39,523 nucleotides of DNA from Prevotella sp. (lineage in GTDB: Bacteria > Bacteroidota > Bacteroidia > Bacteroidales > Bacteroidaceae): positions 1 to 39,523 of the forward strand of contig JAFVHN010000080.1 in NCBI GenBank assembly GCA_017474515.1, written 5' to 3'. Shown here piece by piece: positions 432 through 31,275 of this stretch (position 1 is its first letter; each line of letters begins with the position of its first letter). The position numbers and the translations under genes are program-made. A model generated the notes under the pieces. That model was not told the DNA's origin. It did not search any database and worked only from the letters and a program-made list of their open reading frames with translations.

Positions 432-585
432 CGCCGCCAATTCTCTCCTCTTAAACTGCCATTTTTCTCCTTGAAATTTGCGGTCAAACCAAGCATGATT
501 TGCAAACCGCTGAAATTCAGCGGTTTACGGAATCTTTGTAAAAACACCCCGTTTTGTCAAATATTTTTACCGATTTTTCCCCTTC
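431..585 (+). repeat. Interspersed structured element, copy 1 (truncated)
   Basis: This is the right-hand part of the roughly 220-base element found complete at 6661, 16692 and 30963. The right palindrome arm GAAATTTGCGGTCAAAC is present at 473-489, and the 3' end GTTTTGTCAAATATTTTTAC at about 551-570 matches copy 2. The left palindrome arm and 5' end are missing. This copy alone carries an extra 11-base-pair hairpin at 504-526 in the place where other copies have a diverged AT-rich stretch. Confidence 0.75.
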
Positions 586-678
586 CGCTATCCGTCGCAA
601 AATAACGAAAAAAACAAATCGGTCATAAGTCGTACCATCATTCATGGACCGGCTTCCTGATGGCCGATTAGGGTTCAT

Positions 679-3128: not shown

Positions 3129-3170
3129 TTCCAAAGGAGTTTTATTTCTATGGAGTTTTATTTTTTTATT

Positions 3171-3320
3171 CTCTAAGGAGTTTGGGAGCAAAGGAGCTCG
3201 GTTCTCTCTGAGGGTCGTTTTTTATCTCTAAGGAGTTTGGGAGCAAAGGTGCTCGGTTCTCTCTGAGGGTTTTTCTCTCTAAGGAGCTTGGGAACAAAGG
3301 AGTTTTTCTCTTTGAGGGTT
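3171..3320. repeat. Three tandem units of about 50 bases between operon genes
   Basis: Three imperfect units start with CTCTAAGGAGTTTGGGAGCA or close variants at about 3171, 3226 and 3277 (55, 51 and 44 bases). They end exactly at the stop codon of the sugar transferase (3319-3321) and reach to within about 45 bases of the aminotransferase start. The word CTCTAAGGAGTTT recurs at about 8278 and 8318. On the transcript strand the repeat is pyrimidine-rich with CTCCTTTG words. Confidence 0.8.
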
Positions 3321-3999
3321 ACTCATGCGCCAGGCGGATGATTTCGTCGTTGGCGAGTTCGGCGGCTTTCTCGTCGGAGAGGGAACCGTCGGCTTTGTTC
3401 TCGTAAATGTCTTTCCTTGCGAACACTCCCGCGAAGGTCTTGAGGATGATGTATGCGTCGAGGGCCACGCCCCATTTCCTGTAGAGGTCGATGTAGCGGG
3501 CGTCGAAGTCGGCCTTGACATCCCACGGCAGTTCGTTGCGGCCCTGTATCTGCGCATAGCCGGTGATGCCGGCCACTACGTCGAAGCGCTTCTTGAAACG
3601 CCGGTTAAGGGTGTCGAAATCGCCCAGCTCGTAGGTGACGCAGGGCCGCGGTCCCACCAGCGACATATCGCCACGCAACACGTTGATGAGCTGAGGCAGC
3701 TCGTCGATGCTGGTGGTGCGCAGGAAGTGCCCCGACTTGGTGACGCGCGGGTCGTCCTTGTAGTTGAAAAGTCCGGTGCCCATGTTCTCCGCGTTGACGA
3801 CCATGGAGCGGAACTTATACATGTGGAACACGCGCCCATGCTTGGTGCGGCGGTCTTGCCTGAAGAAGACGGGTCCCGGCGAGTCGCGCTTTATCCAAAG
3901 GGCGCACACCGCCATGAGCGGCGAGAGCACGATGAGCGCAACGGCGGCAAGGAGGATGTCGAAGCCGCGCTTCAGGAGGTTGTTCAGGGCGACCCACAT
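3319..3999 (-). CDS. Initiating sugar transferase (polyprenyl-phosphate glycosyl-1-phosphate transferase)
   Basis: 226 residues of PF02397. A membrane segment at about 13-36, KFRSM at 62-66, the catalytic Asp-Glu at 99-100 in DELPQL, VGPRP at 115-119 and GITGYAQIQGRN near 145 are all canonical. It should transfer a hexose or acetamido-sugar phosphate to undecaprenyl phosphate to start the repeat unit. The C-terminal 30 residues are acidic and polar (ADGSLSDEKAAELANDE) and extend past the usual end of the monotopic core. The start at 3999 lies six bases after the stop of the decarboxylase gene (4006), so they are co-transcribed. This copy has the more canonical motifs of the two and is the better candidate for the first step. 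Confidence 0.92.
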   Translation of the reverse strand: MWVALNNLLKRGFDILLAAVALIVLSPLMAVCALWIKRDSPGPVFFRQDRRTKHGRVFHMYKFRSMVVNAENMGTGLFNYKDDPRVTKSGHFLRTTSIDELPQLINVLRGDMSLVGPRPCVTYELGDFDTLNRRFKKRFDVVAGITGYAQIQGRNELPWDVKADFDARYIDLYRKWGVALDAYIILKTFAGVFARKDIYENKADGSLSDEKAAELANDEIIRLAHE

Positions 4000-6198: not shown

Positions 6199-6358
6199 AG
6201 GAGCCGACGCCATAGGACCGACGCTTGTAGGAGCCGACGCAATAGGAGCCGACGCAATAGGAGCCGACGCCTCCGAGCGTCGGAGTAACTACATCTCTGC
6301 CGAACAAGAATATAAAGTTACTCCGACGCTTGGAAGCGTCGGCTCCTATTGCGTCGGC
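6199..6358 (+). repeat. GCC-rich palindromic module, copy A
   Basis: Five units of TAGGAGCCGACGCAA or close variants run in tandem from 6199 to 6270. The last leads into a 32-base arm (259-290 of this kilobase, i.e. 6259-6290) that is complementary to 6316-6347 with one or two mismatches across a 25-base loop. Each arm is itself a hairpin: CCGACGC at 6264-6270 with GCGTCGG at 6277-6283, and CCGACGC at 6323-6329 with GCGTCGG at 6336-6342. Copy B at 16438-16524 has the same layout but one unit only. Confidence 0.85.
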
Positions 6359-6397
6359 TATTAAATTCGGCTTTTACGAGGCATGTTTCCGGCTAAT

Positions 6398-6486
6398 GTA
6401 GGGACATACTTTATGTATGTCCGAAAACACCCCAAATAACGCCCTGAAATACAGAGGCTGGCGGACATACATAAAGTTGTCCCTAC
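6398..6486 (+). repeat. ACATAC palindromic module, copy A1
   Basis: The left arm (6398-6423) begins GTAGGGACATAC and the right arm (6462-6486) is its reverse complement with one base missing. Each arm is itself a hairpin: GGACATAC, a five-base loop TTTAT, then GTATGTCC. The centre holds CGAAAACACCCC and GAGGCTGG, conserved in other copies. Confidence 0.85.
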
Positions 6487-6543
6487 GGAAAACCGCGAAT
6501 TGCAAAATCGGCCGAACTCTTACGAGGCATGTTTCCGGCTAAT

Positions 6544-6633
6544 GTAGGGACATACTTTATGTATGTCCGAAAACACCCCAGATAACGCCCTGAAATACTG
6601 AGGCTGGCGGACATACATAAAGTATGTCCCTAC
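6544..6633 (+). repeat. ACATAC palindromic module, copy A2
   Basis: A second 90-base copy with perfect 26-base arms (6544-6569 and 6608-6633). It is a tandem duplicate of A1 together with about 30 bases of upstream linker (TTACGAGGCATGTTTCCGGC), so the pair repeats with a period of about 146 bases. Confidence 0.88.
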
Positions 6634-6660
6634 GTGCTTGTTCTTTTATCCTCAGTCAGC

Positions 6661-6880
6661 GGATTTTGTCAAGATTTTTCAAGGATTTTTAGGTGCCCAA
6701 AAGAGTTTGACCGCAAATTTCAAGGGGAAATCTTCAAAATCTCTCTCCTCAATCTTCAAGATCTCTCCCCGAAATTTGCGGTCAAACCAAGCGAAGTTTA
6801 TAAACTATTGATATGCAATAACTTACGGAACAGGTGCAAAATCAGCAGATTTTGTCAAATATTTTTACCAATTTTCACCT
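6661..6880 (+). repeat. Interspersed structured element, copy 2 (complete)
   Basis: About 220 bases. It starts GGATTTTGTCAAGATTTTTC and ends with TTTTGTCAAATATTTTTACC, so the two ends form a diverged direct repeat. In between, GTTTGACCGCAAATTTC (6705-6721) is perfectly complementary to 6771-6787, enclosing 49 bases with two near-copies of a TCTTCAA-ATCTC word. Nearly the same frame occurs at 16692-16909 and 30963-31180. Confidence 0.85.
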
Positions 6881-6948
6881 ATGAAACTATCCCCCTGTTT
6901 TCGTCTGAACTCCTTGACTCAGGGACTTGCGAACTCCAGGTAAAAAGC

Positions 6949-8223: not shown

Positions 8224-8367
8224 TTTCTTTATTTCTACGGAGGTTTATTTTTCTCTTTTATTCTACGGCTTTTTTATCTCTAAGGAGTTTTTCTCTACGG
8301 CTTGTTTTTTATCTCTAAGGAGTTTTTGGAGTAAAGGAGTTTCACTTAAAACTGGCGGTAGCAAATT

Positions 8368-8456
8368 CTTCACTCTTCACTCATCACTCTTCACTTTAAA
8401 AACTGGCGGTAGCAAATTCTTCACTCTTCACTCTTCACTAAAAAAACTCTTCACTT
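8368..8456. repeat. CTTCACT heptamer repeat in a duplicated 50-base unit
   Basis: CTTCACT or CATCACT occurs four times in tandem at 8368-8395 and three times at 8419-8439, each series preceded by ACTGGCGGTAGCAAATT, with one more partial word near 8447. The repeat lies between the glycosyltransferase stop (8468) and the beta-propeller start (8223). Upstream at 8278-8330 the words CTCTAAGGAGTTT recur. No promoter is seen. Confidence 0.8.
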
Positions 8457-16422: not shown

Positions 16423-16437
16423 GTAGGAGCCTTGAAT

Positions 16438-16524
16438 AGGAACCGACGCCTCCGAGCGTCGGAGTAACTAAATCTCCCGAACATGGTATTAAAGCTACTC
16501 CTACGCTTGGAAGCGTCGGCTCCT
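16438..16524 (+). repeat. GCC-rich palindromic module, copy B
   Basis: Left arm 16438-16469 and right arm 16493-16524 (32 bases each, few mismatches) with a 23-base loop. Each arm folds on itself around GCGTCGG. It starts 15 bases after the transporter stop, so it could act as a terminator or 3' stabiliser. Confidence 0.85.
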
Positions 16525-16574
16525 ATGGCGTCGGCAATTAAATTCGGCTCTTACGAGGCATGTTTCCGGCTAAT

Positions 16575-16664
16575 GTAGGGACATACTTTATGTATGTCCG
16601 AAAACACCCCAAATAACGCCCTGAAATATAGAGGCTGGCGGACATACATAAAGTATGTCCCTAC
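16575..16664 (+). repeat. ACATAC palindromic module, copy B
   Basis: Perfect 26-base arms at 16575-16600 and 16639-16664, each with the internal GGACATAC / GTATGTCC hairpin. The 90 bases are nearly identical to copy A2 at 6544-6633. Confidence 0.88.
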
Positions 16665-16691
16665 GTGCTTGTTCTTTTATCCTCAGTCAGC

Positions 16692-16909
16692 GGATTTTGT
16701 CAAGATTTTTCAAAGATTTTGCGGTGCCCAAACGAGTTTGACGGCAAATATCGGGGAGAGAATTGGCAAATCTCTCCCCTCAAATTGGCAAATCTCTCCC
16801 CGAAAATTGCCGTCAAACTTGGGGTGGTTTGCAAACTATTGATATTCAATGTTTTACAAAACGGGTGCAAAATCGCCCCGTTTTGTCAAAATTTTTCATA
16901 ATTTTCATA
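16692..16909 (+). repeat. Interspersed structured element, copy 3 (complete)
   Basis: About 218 bases starting GGATTTTGTCAAGATTTTTC. The arm at 16736-16761 (GTTTGACGGCAAATATCGGG and on) pairs with 16793-16818 over 26 bases with two mismatches. Relative to copies 2 and 4 the stem has GACGGCAA / TTGCCGTC in place of GACCGCAA / TTGCGGTC, a paired change. The core contains AATTGGCAAATCTCTCCCC twice in tandem. Confidence 0.85.
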
Positions 16910-16977
16910 CGCCTCTCGCCCCCCTCTCTAATCCCCCAAGGCGGGGAAGTTCGGCGCGACATACTTCAATAAAAAAT

Positions 16978-17028: not shown

Positions 17029-18654
17029 TTAGAATGTGCAGCCCACGGCAAGGGTTGCCGTGGAGCGGTCGGTGCCGGCCAGTTGGTCGCGGTGCTCGGG
17101 ATGGGGTGCGCGGCAGTGGTCGGCGCTGATGCTGATGTATGCCGGCAGGGCCGGGCGCACAGGAAAGGCCACCTTTGCCGTAACGCCCAGGTGGTATTGT
17201 CCGGCGGTGAGCCATTCATATTCGCGCAACAGCCAGGTGTCGGTGGTGGGCGGCGGCGATTGCTTGTCGGACGGCATGGCCAGGGTGCCGTCGCTGAAGG
17301 GCTGCCCGCTGCCCTCCTGCCATCCGCCTCTCAGCTGAAGTGAGAGGAGCGAGGACCGCAGGGGGATGTTGCGTTGCAGTGCGGCGTGCCAATGGCGGCT
17401 GTCCACCCGCTGTCGCCGCACGAAGGGATAGGCGTAGGCCGTCTGGCGGCGGTGGCCCCATTCGAGGGCGGCGGTGACGGTCCATGTGGGCAGGCCGTTG
17501 CGCAATCCCAGGTGGCCGGTATAGGCGGCGCGGCCCTCCACCCACAGCTTGTTGGCCGTCTTCACCGGGTCGTAGTATTCGTAGTAGTTCGACCCGGCAT
17601 CGTTGATTGTCTCGCGGTAGGTGGAGGCATGGTTCTCAAGGTTTTCGGCCTCCACGGAGAAGTCGAGCAGGTAGCGGCTGCGGCCGCTGTGGAGCGTCAG
17701 GCGCGAGTGGTAAGCGTAGCGCATGCTCTCGTGGGCTGAGAGCCGCACGGTGTAGGGCGAACGGCGCCCGTAGTAGCCGCGGCGGCGGGCGATGGCGGCC
17801 TCGTGGTGCCATTCCACCTGGGAGCGTGAGGAATGAGGAATGGCGCTCTTGAATGTAATTTGAAGCGATGCGCCGTGCTGCTCATCCACGAAGGGCATGG
17901 AGTGGTTTTTGTTGGTATAGCCTTCGGTGCCGAACTGCTCCACCTTCCCCATGAACACGCCGTAGGCGATGAGCGAGTTGTAGTTCTTGTCGTAGCGGCC
18001 GTAGGTGCGGAAGTCGAGGCTCTCGGTGCTTCGGCGGTACAGATAGGCGGCTCCAAGGTCGAAATGCGGGCCCACGGGCATGAGCAGTCCGGCGCTGACC
18101 TGCATGTCCATGAGCAGGTTTTTGTGGCGCAAGTCCTTGTATTTGGCATAGTTGGCCGACGTGTAGTCAATGCGTAGGCCGGCGGCCAATCCGCGCCATA
18201 GGTCGGCTCCCACGGCACCCGTCAGCCGGTAGGTGTCGCGATGTTTCCGCCCCAGGTTGGTGAGCGAGTCCTCCACGATGTCGAAGGGCATGCGCGTCGG
18301 GTTGGTGAACACCGAACCGCCCATCCTCTTTCCGCTGAACGTGTTGAGGCTCATGCTTCCATAGGCTGCCACGCGCGGCGATAGCCTGAAGAAACTCTCC
18401 ACGCTTGCCGCGGCCTCGTCGGCGTGTGGCGACTGGCTGTAGTCGGCCCATGCGCCGCGTTGCATTTGCATGCTGACATCGGCCGTGCTGATGTTGCGGC
18501 CTGTCATGCGTGTGAGCCCGGCGGCATTGGCCGAGGTGAGCCATGCCGACGAGTCGCGCTCAAAGGCAAAGTCGCGGTGCTGCGCCTGCATCCCGGTCGT
18601 TGCGAGAAGGAGCACGGCGAGCAACAGGTGCCTATGGTAAGAGTGAACAGCCAT
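17029..18654 (-). CDS. Outer-membrane barrel protein, DUF6850 family
   Basis: About 541 residues from the ATG at 18654. It starts with a signal peptide (HLLLAVLLLATTGMQAQ) and ends in an aromatic residue (LAVGCTF) as outer-membrane barrels do. Amphipathic strands with alternating residues run through the protein. The pattern and the company of a TonB-dependent receptor and DUF4876 protein fit the DUF6850 family of Bacteroidetes; the function is not known. The ORF extends to 18747, but that part only translates a 7-base tandem repeat, so 18654 is chosen. It is the last gene of the receptor operon and is followed by a strong terminator. Confidence 0.75.
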   Translation of the reverse strand: MAVHSYHRHLLLAVLLLATTGMQAQHRDFAFERDSSAWLTSANAAGLTRMTGRNISTADVSMQMQRGAWADYSQSPHADEAAASVESFFRLSPRVAAYGSMSLNTFSGKRMGGSVFTNPTRMPFDIVEDSLTNLGRKHRDTYRLTGAVGADLWRGLAAGLRIDYTSANYAKYKDLRHKNLLMDMQVSAGLLMPVGPHFDLGAAYLYRRSTESLDFRTYGRYDKNYNSLIAYGVFMGKVEQFGTEGYTNKNHSMPFVDEQHGASLQITFKSAIPHSSRSQVEWHHEAAIARRRGYYGRRSPYTVRLSAHESMRYAYHSRLTLHSGRSRYLLDFSVEAENLENHASTYRETINDAGSNYYEYYDPVKTANKLWVEGRAAYTGHLGLRNGLPTWTVTAALEWGHRRQTAYAYPFVRRQRVDSRHWHAALQRNIPLRSSLLSLQLRGGWQEGSGQPFSDGTLAMPSDKQSPPPTTDTWLLREYEWLTAGQYHLGVTAKVAFPVRPALPAYISISADHCRAPHPEHRDQLAGTDRSTATLAVGCTF

Positions 18655-18665
18655 CTTTAAAGTAT

Positions 18666-18768
18666 GAATGAGGAATGAGGAATGAGGAATTAGGAGTGAG
18701 GAATGAGGAATTAGGAATTTTGTTTTTGGTTTTCCCCAATTCCTCATTCCTCATTCCTAATTCCTAAT
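18666..18768. repeat. GAATGAG heptamer repeat with inverted partner
   Basis: Eight phased units GAATGAG/GAATTAG/GAGTGAG fill 18666-18720. After a 17-base T-rich spacer the complement appears as CATTCCT/AATTCCT units from 18738 to 18768. The array forms a long possible hairpin between the DUF4876 stop (18778) and the DUF6850 start (18654). Confidence 0.85.
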
Positions 18769-18777
18769 TGAAAGAAA

Positions 18778-23977: not shown

Positions 23978-24054
23978 TGAGCCAGTCCAAGCCGCAAACG
24001 ACTCCAGTCCAAACCGCAGAAGGACTGGAGTAGGATGCGGCTTGGACTGGCTCA
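23978..24054. repeat. Nested palindrome between divergent genes
   Basis: TGAGCCAGTCCAAGCCGCA (23978-23996) is perfectly complementary to 24036-24054. Inside, ACTCCAGTCC (24001-24010) pairs with 24022-24031. The left half also contains the word CCAGTCCAARCCGCA twice in direct order. No gene ends here, so it is not an ordinary terminator. Confidence 0.85.
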
Positions 24055-30807: not shown

Positions 30808-30933
30808 GTAGGGACATACTTTATATATGTCCGAAAACTTAACGTAGGGACATATTTTATGTATGTCCGAAAACACCCCCTAAAAAACCTTGACATATTG
30901 AGGCTGGCGGACATACATAAAGTATGTCCCTAC
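30808..30933 (+). repeat. ACATAC palindromic module, copy D with an extra left arm
   Basis: A solitary left arm at 30808-30833, a second left arm at 30844-30869 and a right arm at 30908-30933. Each has the GGACATAC-type internal hairpin, with single changes. The first left arm lacks its partner, as expected from a deletion inside a tandem pair such as A1-A2. Confidence 0.85.
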
Positions 30934-30962
30934 ACTGCGTATTATTTTTTCACCGCCTGTAG

Positions 30963-31180
30963 CTTTTGTCAAGATTTTTCAACGATTTTTCGACACCCCG
31001 GAAAGTTTGACCGCAAATTTCAAGGAGAGATTTTGAAGTTTGAGAGGAGAAATCTTGAAGTTTTCTCCCCGAAATTTGCGGTCAAACTTTGGGCCTTCTG
31101 AAAGTTGCTGATTATCAATACATTACAAAACAGCCAAAAATCTTGCAGTTTTGTCAATATTTTTTACCAATTTATATCCA
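30963..31180 (+). repeat. Interspersed structured element, copy 4 (complete)
   Basis: Begins CTTTTGTCAAGATTTTTCAA and ends TTTTGTCAATATTTTTTACC. GTTTGACCGCAAATTTC (31005-31021) pairs perfectly with 31071-31087. The core has two near-copies of a CTTGAAGTTTTCTC-type word in place of the core words of the other copies. Confidence 0.85.
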
Positions 31181-31275
31181 CCTCGTTAACAGCCTTCCTC
31201 CCTCACCCGACAAGGTTTCACCGGAGAGCCGACTATAAGAGCCGGCACTTCATGGGAGCCCCCGCCACGTCAACG

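What the first reader, a model, noticed from the sequence alone, without database searches (positions are those of the whole stretch)
6199..6880. Composite interspersed element with fixed module order and orientation
Three different hairpin-rich modules follow one another in the same order and orientation at 6199-6880 and 16438-16909: a GCC-rich palindrome, an ACATAC palindrome (two copies in the first locus), then a roughly 220-base structured element. The linkers between modules are also conserved (TTACGAGGCATGTTTCCGGC before the ACATAC arm; GTGCTTGTTCTTTTATCCTC before the 220-base element). A shorter version without the GCC module is at 30808-31180 and a fragment at 431-585. All four are on the plus orientation and lie in 3' flanks (two in convergent gaps). 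No transposase or REP-associated tyrosine transposase is encoded in the window. It may be a MITE-like or REP-like element of Bacteroidales moved in trans, or a maintained 3'-end RNA structure.
Basis: seen in the sequence. Interest (0 to 1): 0.72.

Follow-up and report, generated by a model that had tools for sequence, protein, structure and literature searches.

The report
Regularly spaced DNA repeats between genes
A bacterium carries hundreds of copies of a folded, helix-phased DNA element between its genes, and in the third of the genome examined they are never closer together than about four thousand letters, which hints that they may help organise the chromosome rather than being simple junk.

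Summary
The modules exist, but the "composite element" splits into three families. (1) The ACATAC palindrome is a GTAG-tagged REP: the genome's one RAYT gene lies between inverted pairs of it. (2) The GCC palindrome is a second short repeat with no fixed side. (3) The ~220-base module is a 237-bp element: 92 copies in the 1.17 Mb examined (about 280 per genome if the rest is alike), none centred in a called gene, balanced in strand, not confined to gene 3' ends. REPs favour its 5' side.

The unexpected result is spacing: 77 intervals, mean about 13 kb, none under 4.4 kb, where 16-18 under 4 kb are expected; REP and GCC loci in the same DNA show no such repulsion. Three congeners carry elements of similar build but unrelated sequence; one of them shows regular spacing, the others gave too few copies. 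Cores in all four species are quasi-palindromes with 11/22-bp GC/AT phasing, which recalls strong gyrase sites. Best reading: DNA wrapping sites at supercoil-domain scale, spread by an unknown route (0.42). Main rival: a non-autonomous mobile element with insertion spacing (0.38). There are no binding or mobility data.

The parts
6664..6897 (+). full-length copy of the 237-bp regularly spaced intergenic element
   Evidence: nhmmer 225.5 bits, model 1-233; alignment
16695..16930 (+). full-length copy of the element
   Evidence: nhmmer 197.1 bits, model 1-235
30964..31196 (+). full-length copy of the element, interior of the central stem in the flipped orientation
   Evidence: nhmmer 199.2 bits, model 1-233; flip seen in alignment (L006)
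437..604 (+). 5'-truncated copy of the element (5' end motif and 5' stem arm missing)
   Evidence: nhmmer 110 bits, model 72-239
6664..6681 (+). 5' end motif TTTTGTCAAGATTTTTCA (direct repeat, first copy)
   Evidence: 341 matches at <=2 mismatches in the genome, 0 for the reversed control; one element can give two matches
6850..6869 (+). 3' end motif TTTTGTCAAATATTTTTACC (direct repeat, second copy)
   Evidence: repeat family D4; alignment
6704..6787 (.). central quasi-palindrome (arms 6705-6740 / 6752-6787); cores of the family show 11/22-bp GC/AT phasing
   Evidence: inverted repeat I10; periodicity over 88 copies
6807..6819 (.). small dyad (TGA..TCA type) between stem and 3' end motif
   Evidence: sequence; conserved pairs 145-153, 146-152, 147-151
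6398..6633 (.). GTAG-tagged REP repeats (6398-6423 +, 6544-6569 +, 6608-6633 -), a separate family that also brackets the RAYT gene on contig C24
16575..16664 (.). inverted pair of GTAG-tagged REPs
   Evidence: (I24)
30808..30934 (.). three GTAG-tagged REPs (two +, one -)
   Evidence: (I17, I19)
6199..6359 (.). GCC-rich palindrome (CCGACGC..GCGTCGG), separate short repeat family
   Evidence: I2
16435..16535 (.). GCC-rich palindrome, second copy
   Evidence: D13, I4

Best explanation
The 220-base module is one copy of a chromosomal element that works as DNA rather than as RNA. Shown, in the third of the genome examined: 92 intergenic copies, a mean spacing of about 13 kb with no interval below 4.4 kb, conserved motifs separated by freely varying stretches, a helically phased quasi-palindromic core and direct-repeat ends; and three congeners with elements of similar build but different sequence. 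Inferred: the phased core wraps a DNA-bending enzyme, most plausibly gyrase (a strong-gyrase-site or BIME-like role), so that the elements mark supercoil-domain-sized intervals; spacing is kept because clustered sites bring no benefit or do harm. How copies arise is not shown. The GTAG-REP and GCC modules are independent families that share the same gaps.
For: Spacing: 52 intervals, none <4 kb (14.9 expected); further contigs 25 intervals, none <4 kb (7.3 expected); pooled 77 intervals against four random-gap nulls 16.2-18.2 expected, none of 2000 draws per null as low. REP and GCC loci in the same DNA show no repulsion (4 of 10 and 5 of 14 intervals <4.4 kb; 2.1 and 2.3 expected). Same- and opposite-orientation neighbours are alike. 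G275: types with different ends interleave in one array, 17 intervals, CV 0.55 against 1.11, p 0.0004. Lags of 22/11/33/44 (G275 21/11/42) in cores of four species; random G000 DNA shows multiples of three. GC power at 10.5-11.25 bp: AUC 0.93 against intergenic windows; the E. coli gyrase motif is a symmetric 130-bp pattern with 10.75-bp GC period in its arms (PMC6379681, passages). Occupied more where transcription direction changes: 46 of 114 against 31 of 171 gaps of residual length >=150, OR 3.1, p 7e-5. Central stem: G-U 147, A-C 175 cells. Supercoil domains of 10 kb (PMC3420936, start of abstract).
Against: No binding, supercoiling or Hi-C data. The G000 GC period peaks at 11.5, not 10.75; the 12.5-14-bp band separates nearly as well (AUC 0.93, there against all windows of six contigs); 38 of 88 elements exceed the 95th and only 4 of 88 the 99th percentile of intergenic windows. 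Lag 13 is almost as strong as 22 in G000 identity, and any array of 22-bp units gives an 11-bp harmonic. In one search RNAalifold also pairs the two end motifs: those ten nearly invariant pairs hold 126 G-U and 0 A-C, so with them the totals are 273 and 175. Close pairs exist elsewhere: one 3.4-kb interval in G275 and one of ~2.7 kb in G082 if a weak core at 8.9 kb is counted. 359 of 398 genomes of the genus have no match to the end motif at <=1 mismatch, so the exact element is not universal. Positions are not shown to be conserved: element gaps kept gene adjacency in 0 of 10 tests, long gaps without one in 2 of 13.
Confidence: 0.42

Rival explanations
1. A non-autonomous selfish element (MITE- or BIME-like) mobilised in trans by an unidentified enzyme; the minimum spacing comes from insertion itself (target immunity or replication-linked insertion) or from purging of clustered copies, not from a host function. 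Conserved motifs are those the enzyme needs.
For: High copy number, intergenic only, species-specific interiors, decayed copies (low-scoring hits), paired end motifs that almost never occur alone (5 orphans at <=3 mismatches in 1.17 Mb), end types that covary at both ends within G275, no end-motif match in 359 of 398 congeners.
Against: No inverted ends, no excess of matching flanks in 65 copies, no gene-bearing version in the sample; different end types in G275 share one spacing array, which type-specific immunity does not predict; helical phasing kept across unrelated sequences.
Confidence: 0.38
2. A structured RNA (terminator, 3'-end stabiliser or regulatory leader) transcribed from the gap.
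For: Strong stem; in codirectional gaps the element follows gene sense 28 of 39 times, p 0.009; the ten predicted end-motif pairs hold G-U but no A-C cells.
Against: 31 of 87 placed copies lie in divergent gaps; A-C cells as common as G-U in the central stem; no Rfam family at its cut-off, only microRNA models under laxer limits; cannot explain regular spacing.
Confidence: 0.07
3. The first reader's single composite mobile unit GCC-REP-element moved by the RAYT.
For: REP, linker and element recur in 5 of 40 scored regions; REP loci are enriched in element gaps, 14 of 18, and on the 5' side, 11 of 14.
Against: 18 REP and 25 GCC loci against 92 elements in the same DNA, so most copies have neither; GCC has no fixed side (8 of 15); 4 of 18 REP and 10 of 25 GCC loci lie apart from elements. 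The few linked copies fit local duplication or co-transfer.
Confidence: 0.06
4. Spacing is produced only by recombination that deletes DNA between close copies.
For: Copies share sequence.
Against: Opposite-orientation neighbours, which would invert rather than delete, lack short intervals equally (39 intervals, minimum 4.9 kb; 38 same-orientation, minimum 4.4 kb); mean pairwise identity is 65%.
Confidence: 0.04

Closest known systems
GTAG-tagged REP / BIME with RAYT (REPtron)
   Same: ACATAC module: GTAG tag, short palindrome, inverted pairs, RAYT gene between REP pairs
   Different: In the passages I saw of PMC3733652 GTAG repeats are listed for Proteobacteria, Cyanobacteria, Chloroflexi and PVC, and CGTC repeats for Bacteroidetes; the 237-bp element itself has no GTAG tag
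Strong gyrase sites and BIME-2 (E. coli, phage Mu)
   Same: Symmetric stretch of ~110-130 bp with helical GC/AT phasing; intergenic; domain-scale spacing
   Different: No cleavage or binding data here; period nearer 11-11.5; direct-repeat ends and regular spacing are not mentioned in the passages seen
ERIC, RU, BOX, RUP and other intergenic repeats (ERIC recalled; RU and BOX/RUP seen in search listings)
   Same: Short, intergenic, multicopy, foldable (recalled in part)
   Different: Here direct-repeat ends, 21-22-bp phased units, a minimum spacing, species-specific cores of one build
MITE of Porphyromonas gingivalis (PMC4596501, search listing only)
   Same: Bacteroidales, short, multicopy
   Different: No terminal inverted repeats or target duplications found here

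Membership tests
GTAG-REP / RAYT system (ACATAC module) | GTAG-tagged short palindrome, often in inverted pairs | tested here: met
   GTAGGGACATACTTTATGTATGTCC and its inverse
GTAG-REP / RAYT system (ACATAC module) | Y1 transposase of RAYT type flanked by the same REPs | tested here: met
   C24 gene between REP pairs; Pfam Y1_Tnp 35.5 bits over cut-off 23
GTAG-REP / RAYT system (ACATAC module) | NCBIfam REP_Tyr_transpos at curated cut-off | tested here: inconclusive
   77.7 bits against 80, E 7.8e-22
GTAG-REP (237-bp element) | GTAG tag at one end of a short palindrome | tested here: not met
   no GTAG at the ends in the alignment
MITE | terminal inverted repeats | tested here: not met
   ends are direct repeats
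MITE | target-site duplication | tested here: not met
   65 full copies; the best of 8190 k-mer and offset tests rest on 2-3 copies
MITE | related autonomous transposon | tested here: inconclusive
   no gene-bearing copy seen in 1.17 Mb of 3.5 Mb
MITE | dispersed multicopy, non-coding | tested here: met
   92 copies, none centred in a called gene
Strong gyrase site | ~130-bp symmetric pattern with ~10.75-bp GC period | tested here: inconclusive
   11-11.5-bp period over ~110 bp, AUC 0.93, but the 12.5-14-bp band does as well
Strong gyrase site | gyrase binding and cleavage | not testable with these tools
   needs experiment
Structured RNA family | Rfam membership | tested here: not met
   (cut-offs, whole window); only microRNA models below their cut-offs
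Structured RNA family | G-U wobble favoured over A-C in stems | tested here: inconclusive
   central stem 147 against 175 cells; ten nearly invariant end-motif pairs 126 against 0

The most novel reading that the evidence does not exclude
Species of this genus maintain a genome-wide, roughly 13-kb lattice of helically phased DNA sites that anchor gyrase or a nucleoid protein and so set supercoil-domain boundaries at fixed, sequence-encoded places; the sequence of the site turns over between species while its build and spacing are kept.
Probability: 0.25. Interest if true: 0.88.

Novelty: new variant of a known kind. Interest (0 to 1): 0.66.

Why it matters
Whether bacterial supercoil domains have fixed, sequence-encoded boundaries is an old open question (recalled; the 10-kb domain size is from the start of the abstract of PMC3420936). 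A genome with some 280 recognisable, phased, regularly spaced candidate sites would make that directly testable by mapping gyrase and by deleting sites. If the elements are instead selfish, a 4.4-kb exclusion zone would be an unusual transposition rule. Either way the spacing needs an explanation.

Tried and rejected
Composite element as one unit: rejected as the rule. 3'-end bias: rejected. RNA reading: the central stem shows no strand signature, the predicted end-motif pairing does hold only G-U, so it is disfavoured rather than excluded. Target duplications: no excess. Autonomous copy: none seen in the sample. Positional conservation: G275 against the held third of G000 had too little synteny, 0 of 10 element gaps and 2 of 13 long gaps kept adjacency. 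A first script on the same question mapped 1 of 22 G275 elements, by a mapping I judge spurious, and 1 of 4 G249 elements, whose matching gap in G000 does hold an element; one case is no evidence. Exact core pattern in the GTDB r220 collection: 0 (own and near records may be left out). Plasmids, phages, viral contigs: no match. Full-element DNA search in 39 relatives: one 29-base hit. The first GCC regex was wrong (0 hits) and was corrected. The REP regex allows three mismatches and at least one of the 18 loci (C15:44210) is doubtful. Literature: no report of a regularly spaced intergenic repeat of this kind in the listings (open-licence library only, listings capped at 8-15 papers each); passages seen of three papers: PMC3733652, PMC2267715, PMC6379681.

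Full report
What is in the window. The ~220-base module is a 237-bp element with full copies at 6664-6897, 16695-16930 and 30964-31196 and a 5'-truncated copy at 437-604. The window is the whole of contig C1 of a 3.51-Mb draft genome, 88% complete.

The three modules are three families. The ACATAC module is a GTAG-tagged REP: GTAGGGACATACTTTATGTATGTCC in inverted pairs. The genome search found one Y1 transposase gene, and it lies between inverted pairs of this repeat, one of the five units with a single change; NCBIfam names it REP-associated tyrosine transposase at 77.7 bits, just under its cut-off of 80. The GCC palindrome is another short repeat. In 1.17 Mb of this genome, 14 of 18 REP loci and 15 of 25 GCC loci share a gap with an element, while 77 of 285 gaps of residual length 150 or more hold an element. 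REP lies on the 5' side in 11 of 14 cases, GCC in 8 of 15. Against gaps of residual length 300 or more (61 of 144 with an element) the REP excess remains (p 0.003) and the GCC excess does not (p 0.10). The linked order seen in the window belongs to few copies: 5 of 40 scored regions, the query included, hold REP, linker and element (which scored 40 of 284 candidates).

Copy number. The 5' end motif has 341 matches at up to two mismatches in the genome and none for the reversed control; one element can give two matches. With a profile HMM built from 21 copies I found 62 copies in 801 kb and 30 in a further 366 kb: 92 in 1,166,593 bases, or about 280 per genome if the rest is alike. The contigs of both sets were chosen because they were long and known to hold matches; for the second set I had seen some match positions, and 2 of the 21 seed copies come from it, so it is a repeat, not a blind test. 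Both strands are used equally (47 and 45), and none of 92 is centred inside a called gene (genes were called by my own hexamer script, not a published caller). Of 92, 87 fall between two called genes: 31 of 84 divergent gaps, 39 of 421 codirectional, 17 of 76 convergent. Among gaps of residual length 150 or more, gaps where transcription changes direction are occupied 46 of 114 times and codirectional gaps 31 of 171 times (odds ratio 3.1, p 7e-5). In codirectional gaps the element follows gene sense 28 of 39 times (p 0.009), which I do not explain.

Anatomy. In 88 copies (4 of 92 dropped as too incomplete) the mean pairwise identity is 65%, but conservation is bimodal: 81 of 237 columns are at least 90% conserved and 75 are below 60%. 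The conserved blocks are the 5' end motif, the arms of a quasi-palindrome (36-nt arms in the copy at 6664), a TGA/TCA dyad and a second, direct copy of the end motif about 186 bp downstream. The interior of the stem is flipped in some copies. In the predicted structure the central stem and dyad hold 147 G-U and 175 A-C cells, no sign that one strand is kept as RNA; the ten predicted pairs between the two end motifs, nearly invariant, hold 126 G-U and no A-C, which I set aside as uninformative but which does not help my reading. No Rfam family reaches its cut-off there; laxer matches are microRNA models, which I take for chance.

Spacing. In the first 801 kb the 52 intervals average 13.2 kb with a minimum of 4.44 kb; none is under 4 kb where uniform placement gives 14.9. 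The second set gave 25 intervals, mean 12.1 kb, none under 4 kb where 7.3 were expected. Four nulls that place the 87 gap copies only in real intergenic gaps give 16.2 to 18.2 intervals under 4 kb; none of 2000 draws per null was as low as zero. Same-orientation (38) and opposite-orientation (39) neighbours behave alike, so deletion between direct copies cannot be the only reason. REP and GCC loci in the same DNA show no repulsion (4 of 10 and 5 of 14 intervals under 4.4 kb, 2.1 and 2.3 expected), so the effect is not a feature of the gaps as such. Among the 100 places listed, checked by eye, no two from different elements lie closer than 4.4 kb.

Relatives. The end motif is rare in the genus: 39 of 398 genomes, own included, have any match at up to one mismatch. 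In the five congeners I looked into it borders other, unrelated repeats. G275 has elements of about 410 bp (type A; the other types are not delimited) with several kinds of direct-repeat ends on a shared core; 23 copies interleave in one array, 17 intervals, mean 13.5 kb, CV 0.55 against 1.11 expected (p 0.0004), one under 4 kb against 4.2 expected (p 0.03). Some G275 stretches had been chosen because they held a match. G082, from one 77.5-kb contig, has eight clear cores with a minimum of about 4.4 kb and one weaker core at 8.9 kb that would make a 2.7-kb interval. G249, the nearest by rpoC of the 294 of 398 genomes with a match (85%), showed four clear copies in 359 kb, too few to test.

Phasing. 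Cores of all four species contain 21-22-bp units: lag 22 with 11, 33 or 44 leads in G000, G249 and G082 and 21/11 in G275, while random G000 DNA shows multiples of three (G249 rests on 4 copies, G082 on 9, G275 on 14; in G000 lag 13 is nearly as strong in identity). The mean GC profile of 88 G000 cores swings between about 0 and 95% roughly every 11-11.5 bp over some 110 bp; GC power at 10.5-11.25 bp separates elements from intergenic windows with AUC 0.93. In the other three species the median of the best window lies at 10.2-11.3, against a 95th percentile of 9.2 for random 500-bp G000 stretches. The 12.5-14-bp band separates G000 elements as well, and only 4 of 88 pass the 99th percentile, so this is suggestive, not specific. 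The E. coli gyrase motif is a symmetric 130-bp pattern with 10.75-bp GC period in its arms, and gyrase binds BIMEs (PMC6379681, passages). Supercoil domains of 10 kb are given in the start of the abstract of PMC3420936.

How it most likely works. Shown: dispersed, intergenic, regularly spaced, phased DNA elements with conserved motifs and species-specific sequence. Inferred: the phased core is a wrapping site for gyrase or a nucleoid protein, placed about once per supercoil domain and preferred where transcription directions meet or part, where torsion would not cancel. Not shown: binding, function, mode of spread. A selfish element with insertion spacing explains the dispersal better and the shared array of different types worse. 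I put the two at 0.42 and 0.38.

Novelty. Intergenic palindromic repeats and gyrase-binding BIMEs are known kinds. I found no report, in the searches named in Tried and rejected, of such repeats with an exclusion distance, or of cores that keep helical phasing while changing sequence between species. That makes it a new variant with a bold reading open.

Noticed in passing
G000 contig C24:23037-23582 (L031:1354-1899): RAYT gene bracketed by inverted GTAG-REP pairs; nearest relative found is 54% identical in an uncultured Prevotellaceae MAG.
   Followed up: partly
G000, 5' flank of elements such as C15:23080, C27:5195, C53:76789: A further short intergenic repeat, CATTTTTCATTTAGCGAAGCGCC, ends a few bases before the 5' end motif in a number of copies.
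   Followed up: no
window 30964-31196, L028, L029: The interior of the central stem is flipped relative to other copies of the same orientation, as if the palindrome had inverted.
   Followed up: no
G000 codirectional gaps: Where neighbouring genes run the same way, the element follows their sense 28 of 39 times (p 0.009); unexplained.
   Followed up: no
L132-L138 (G090): Another congener carries TTTTGTCAAGATTATTCA, in 6 of the 7 stretches beside a different long repeat (CAAAGTGGGTTTACAGCC).
   Followed up: no
window 18654-18775: Inverted arms made of AATGAGGA/AATTAGGA units (I5, I8).
   Followed up: no
window 3163-3321 and 8270-8439: Short tandem repeats (CTCTAAGGAGTTTGGGAGCAAAGG; AAAACTGGCGGTAGCAAATTCTTCACTCTTCACT).
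   Followed up: no
window 23978-24054: 33-nt inverted repeat (TGAGCCAGTCCAAGCCGC..) between two long ORFs, unlike the three families.
   Followed up: no
G249 contigs C46, C40, C5, C7, C9: A second G249 repeat family made of CAATTTAAATTGC-type units, also scattered.
   Followed up: no
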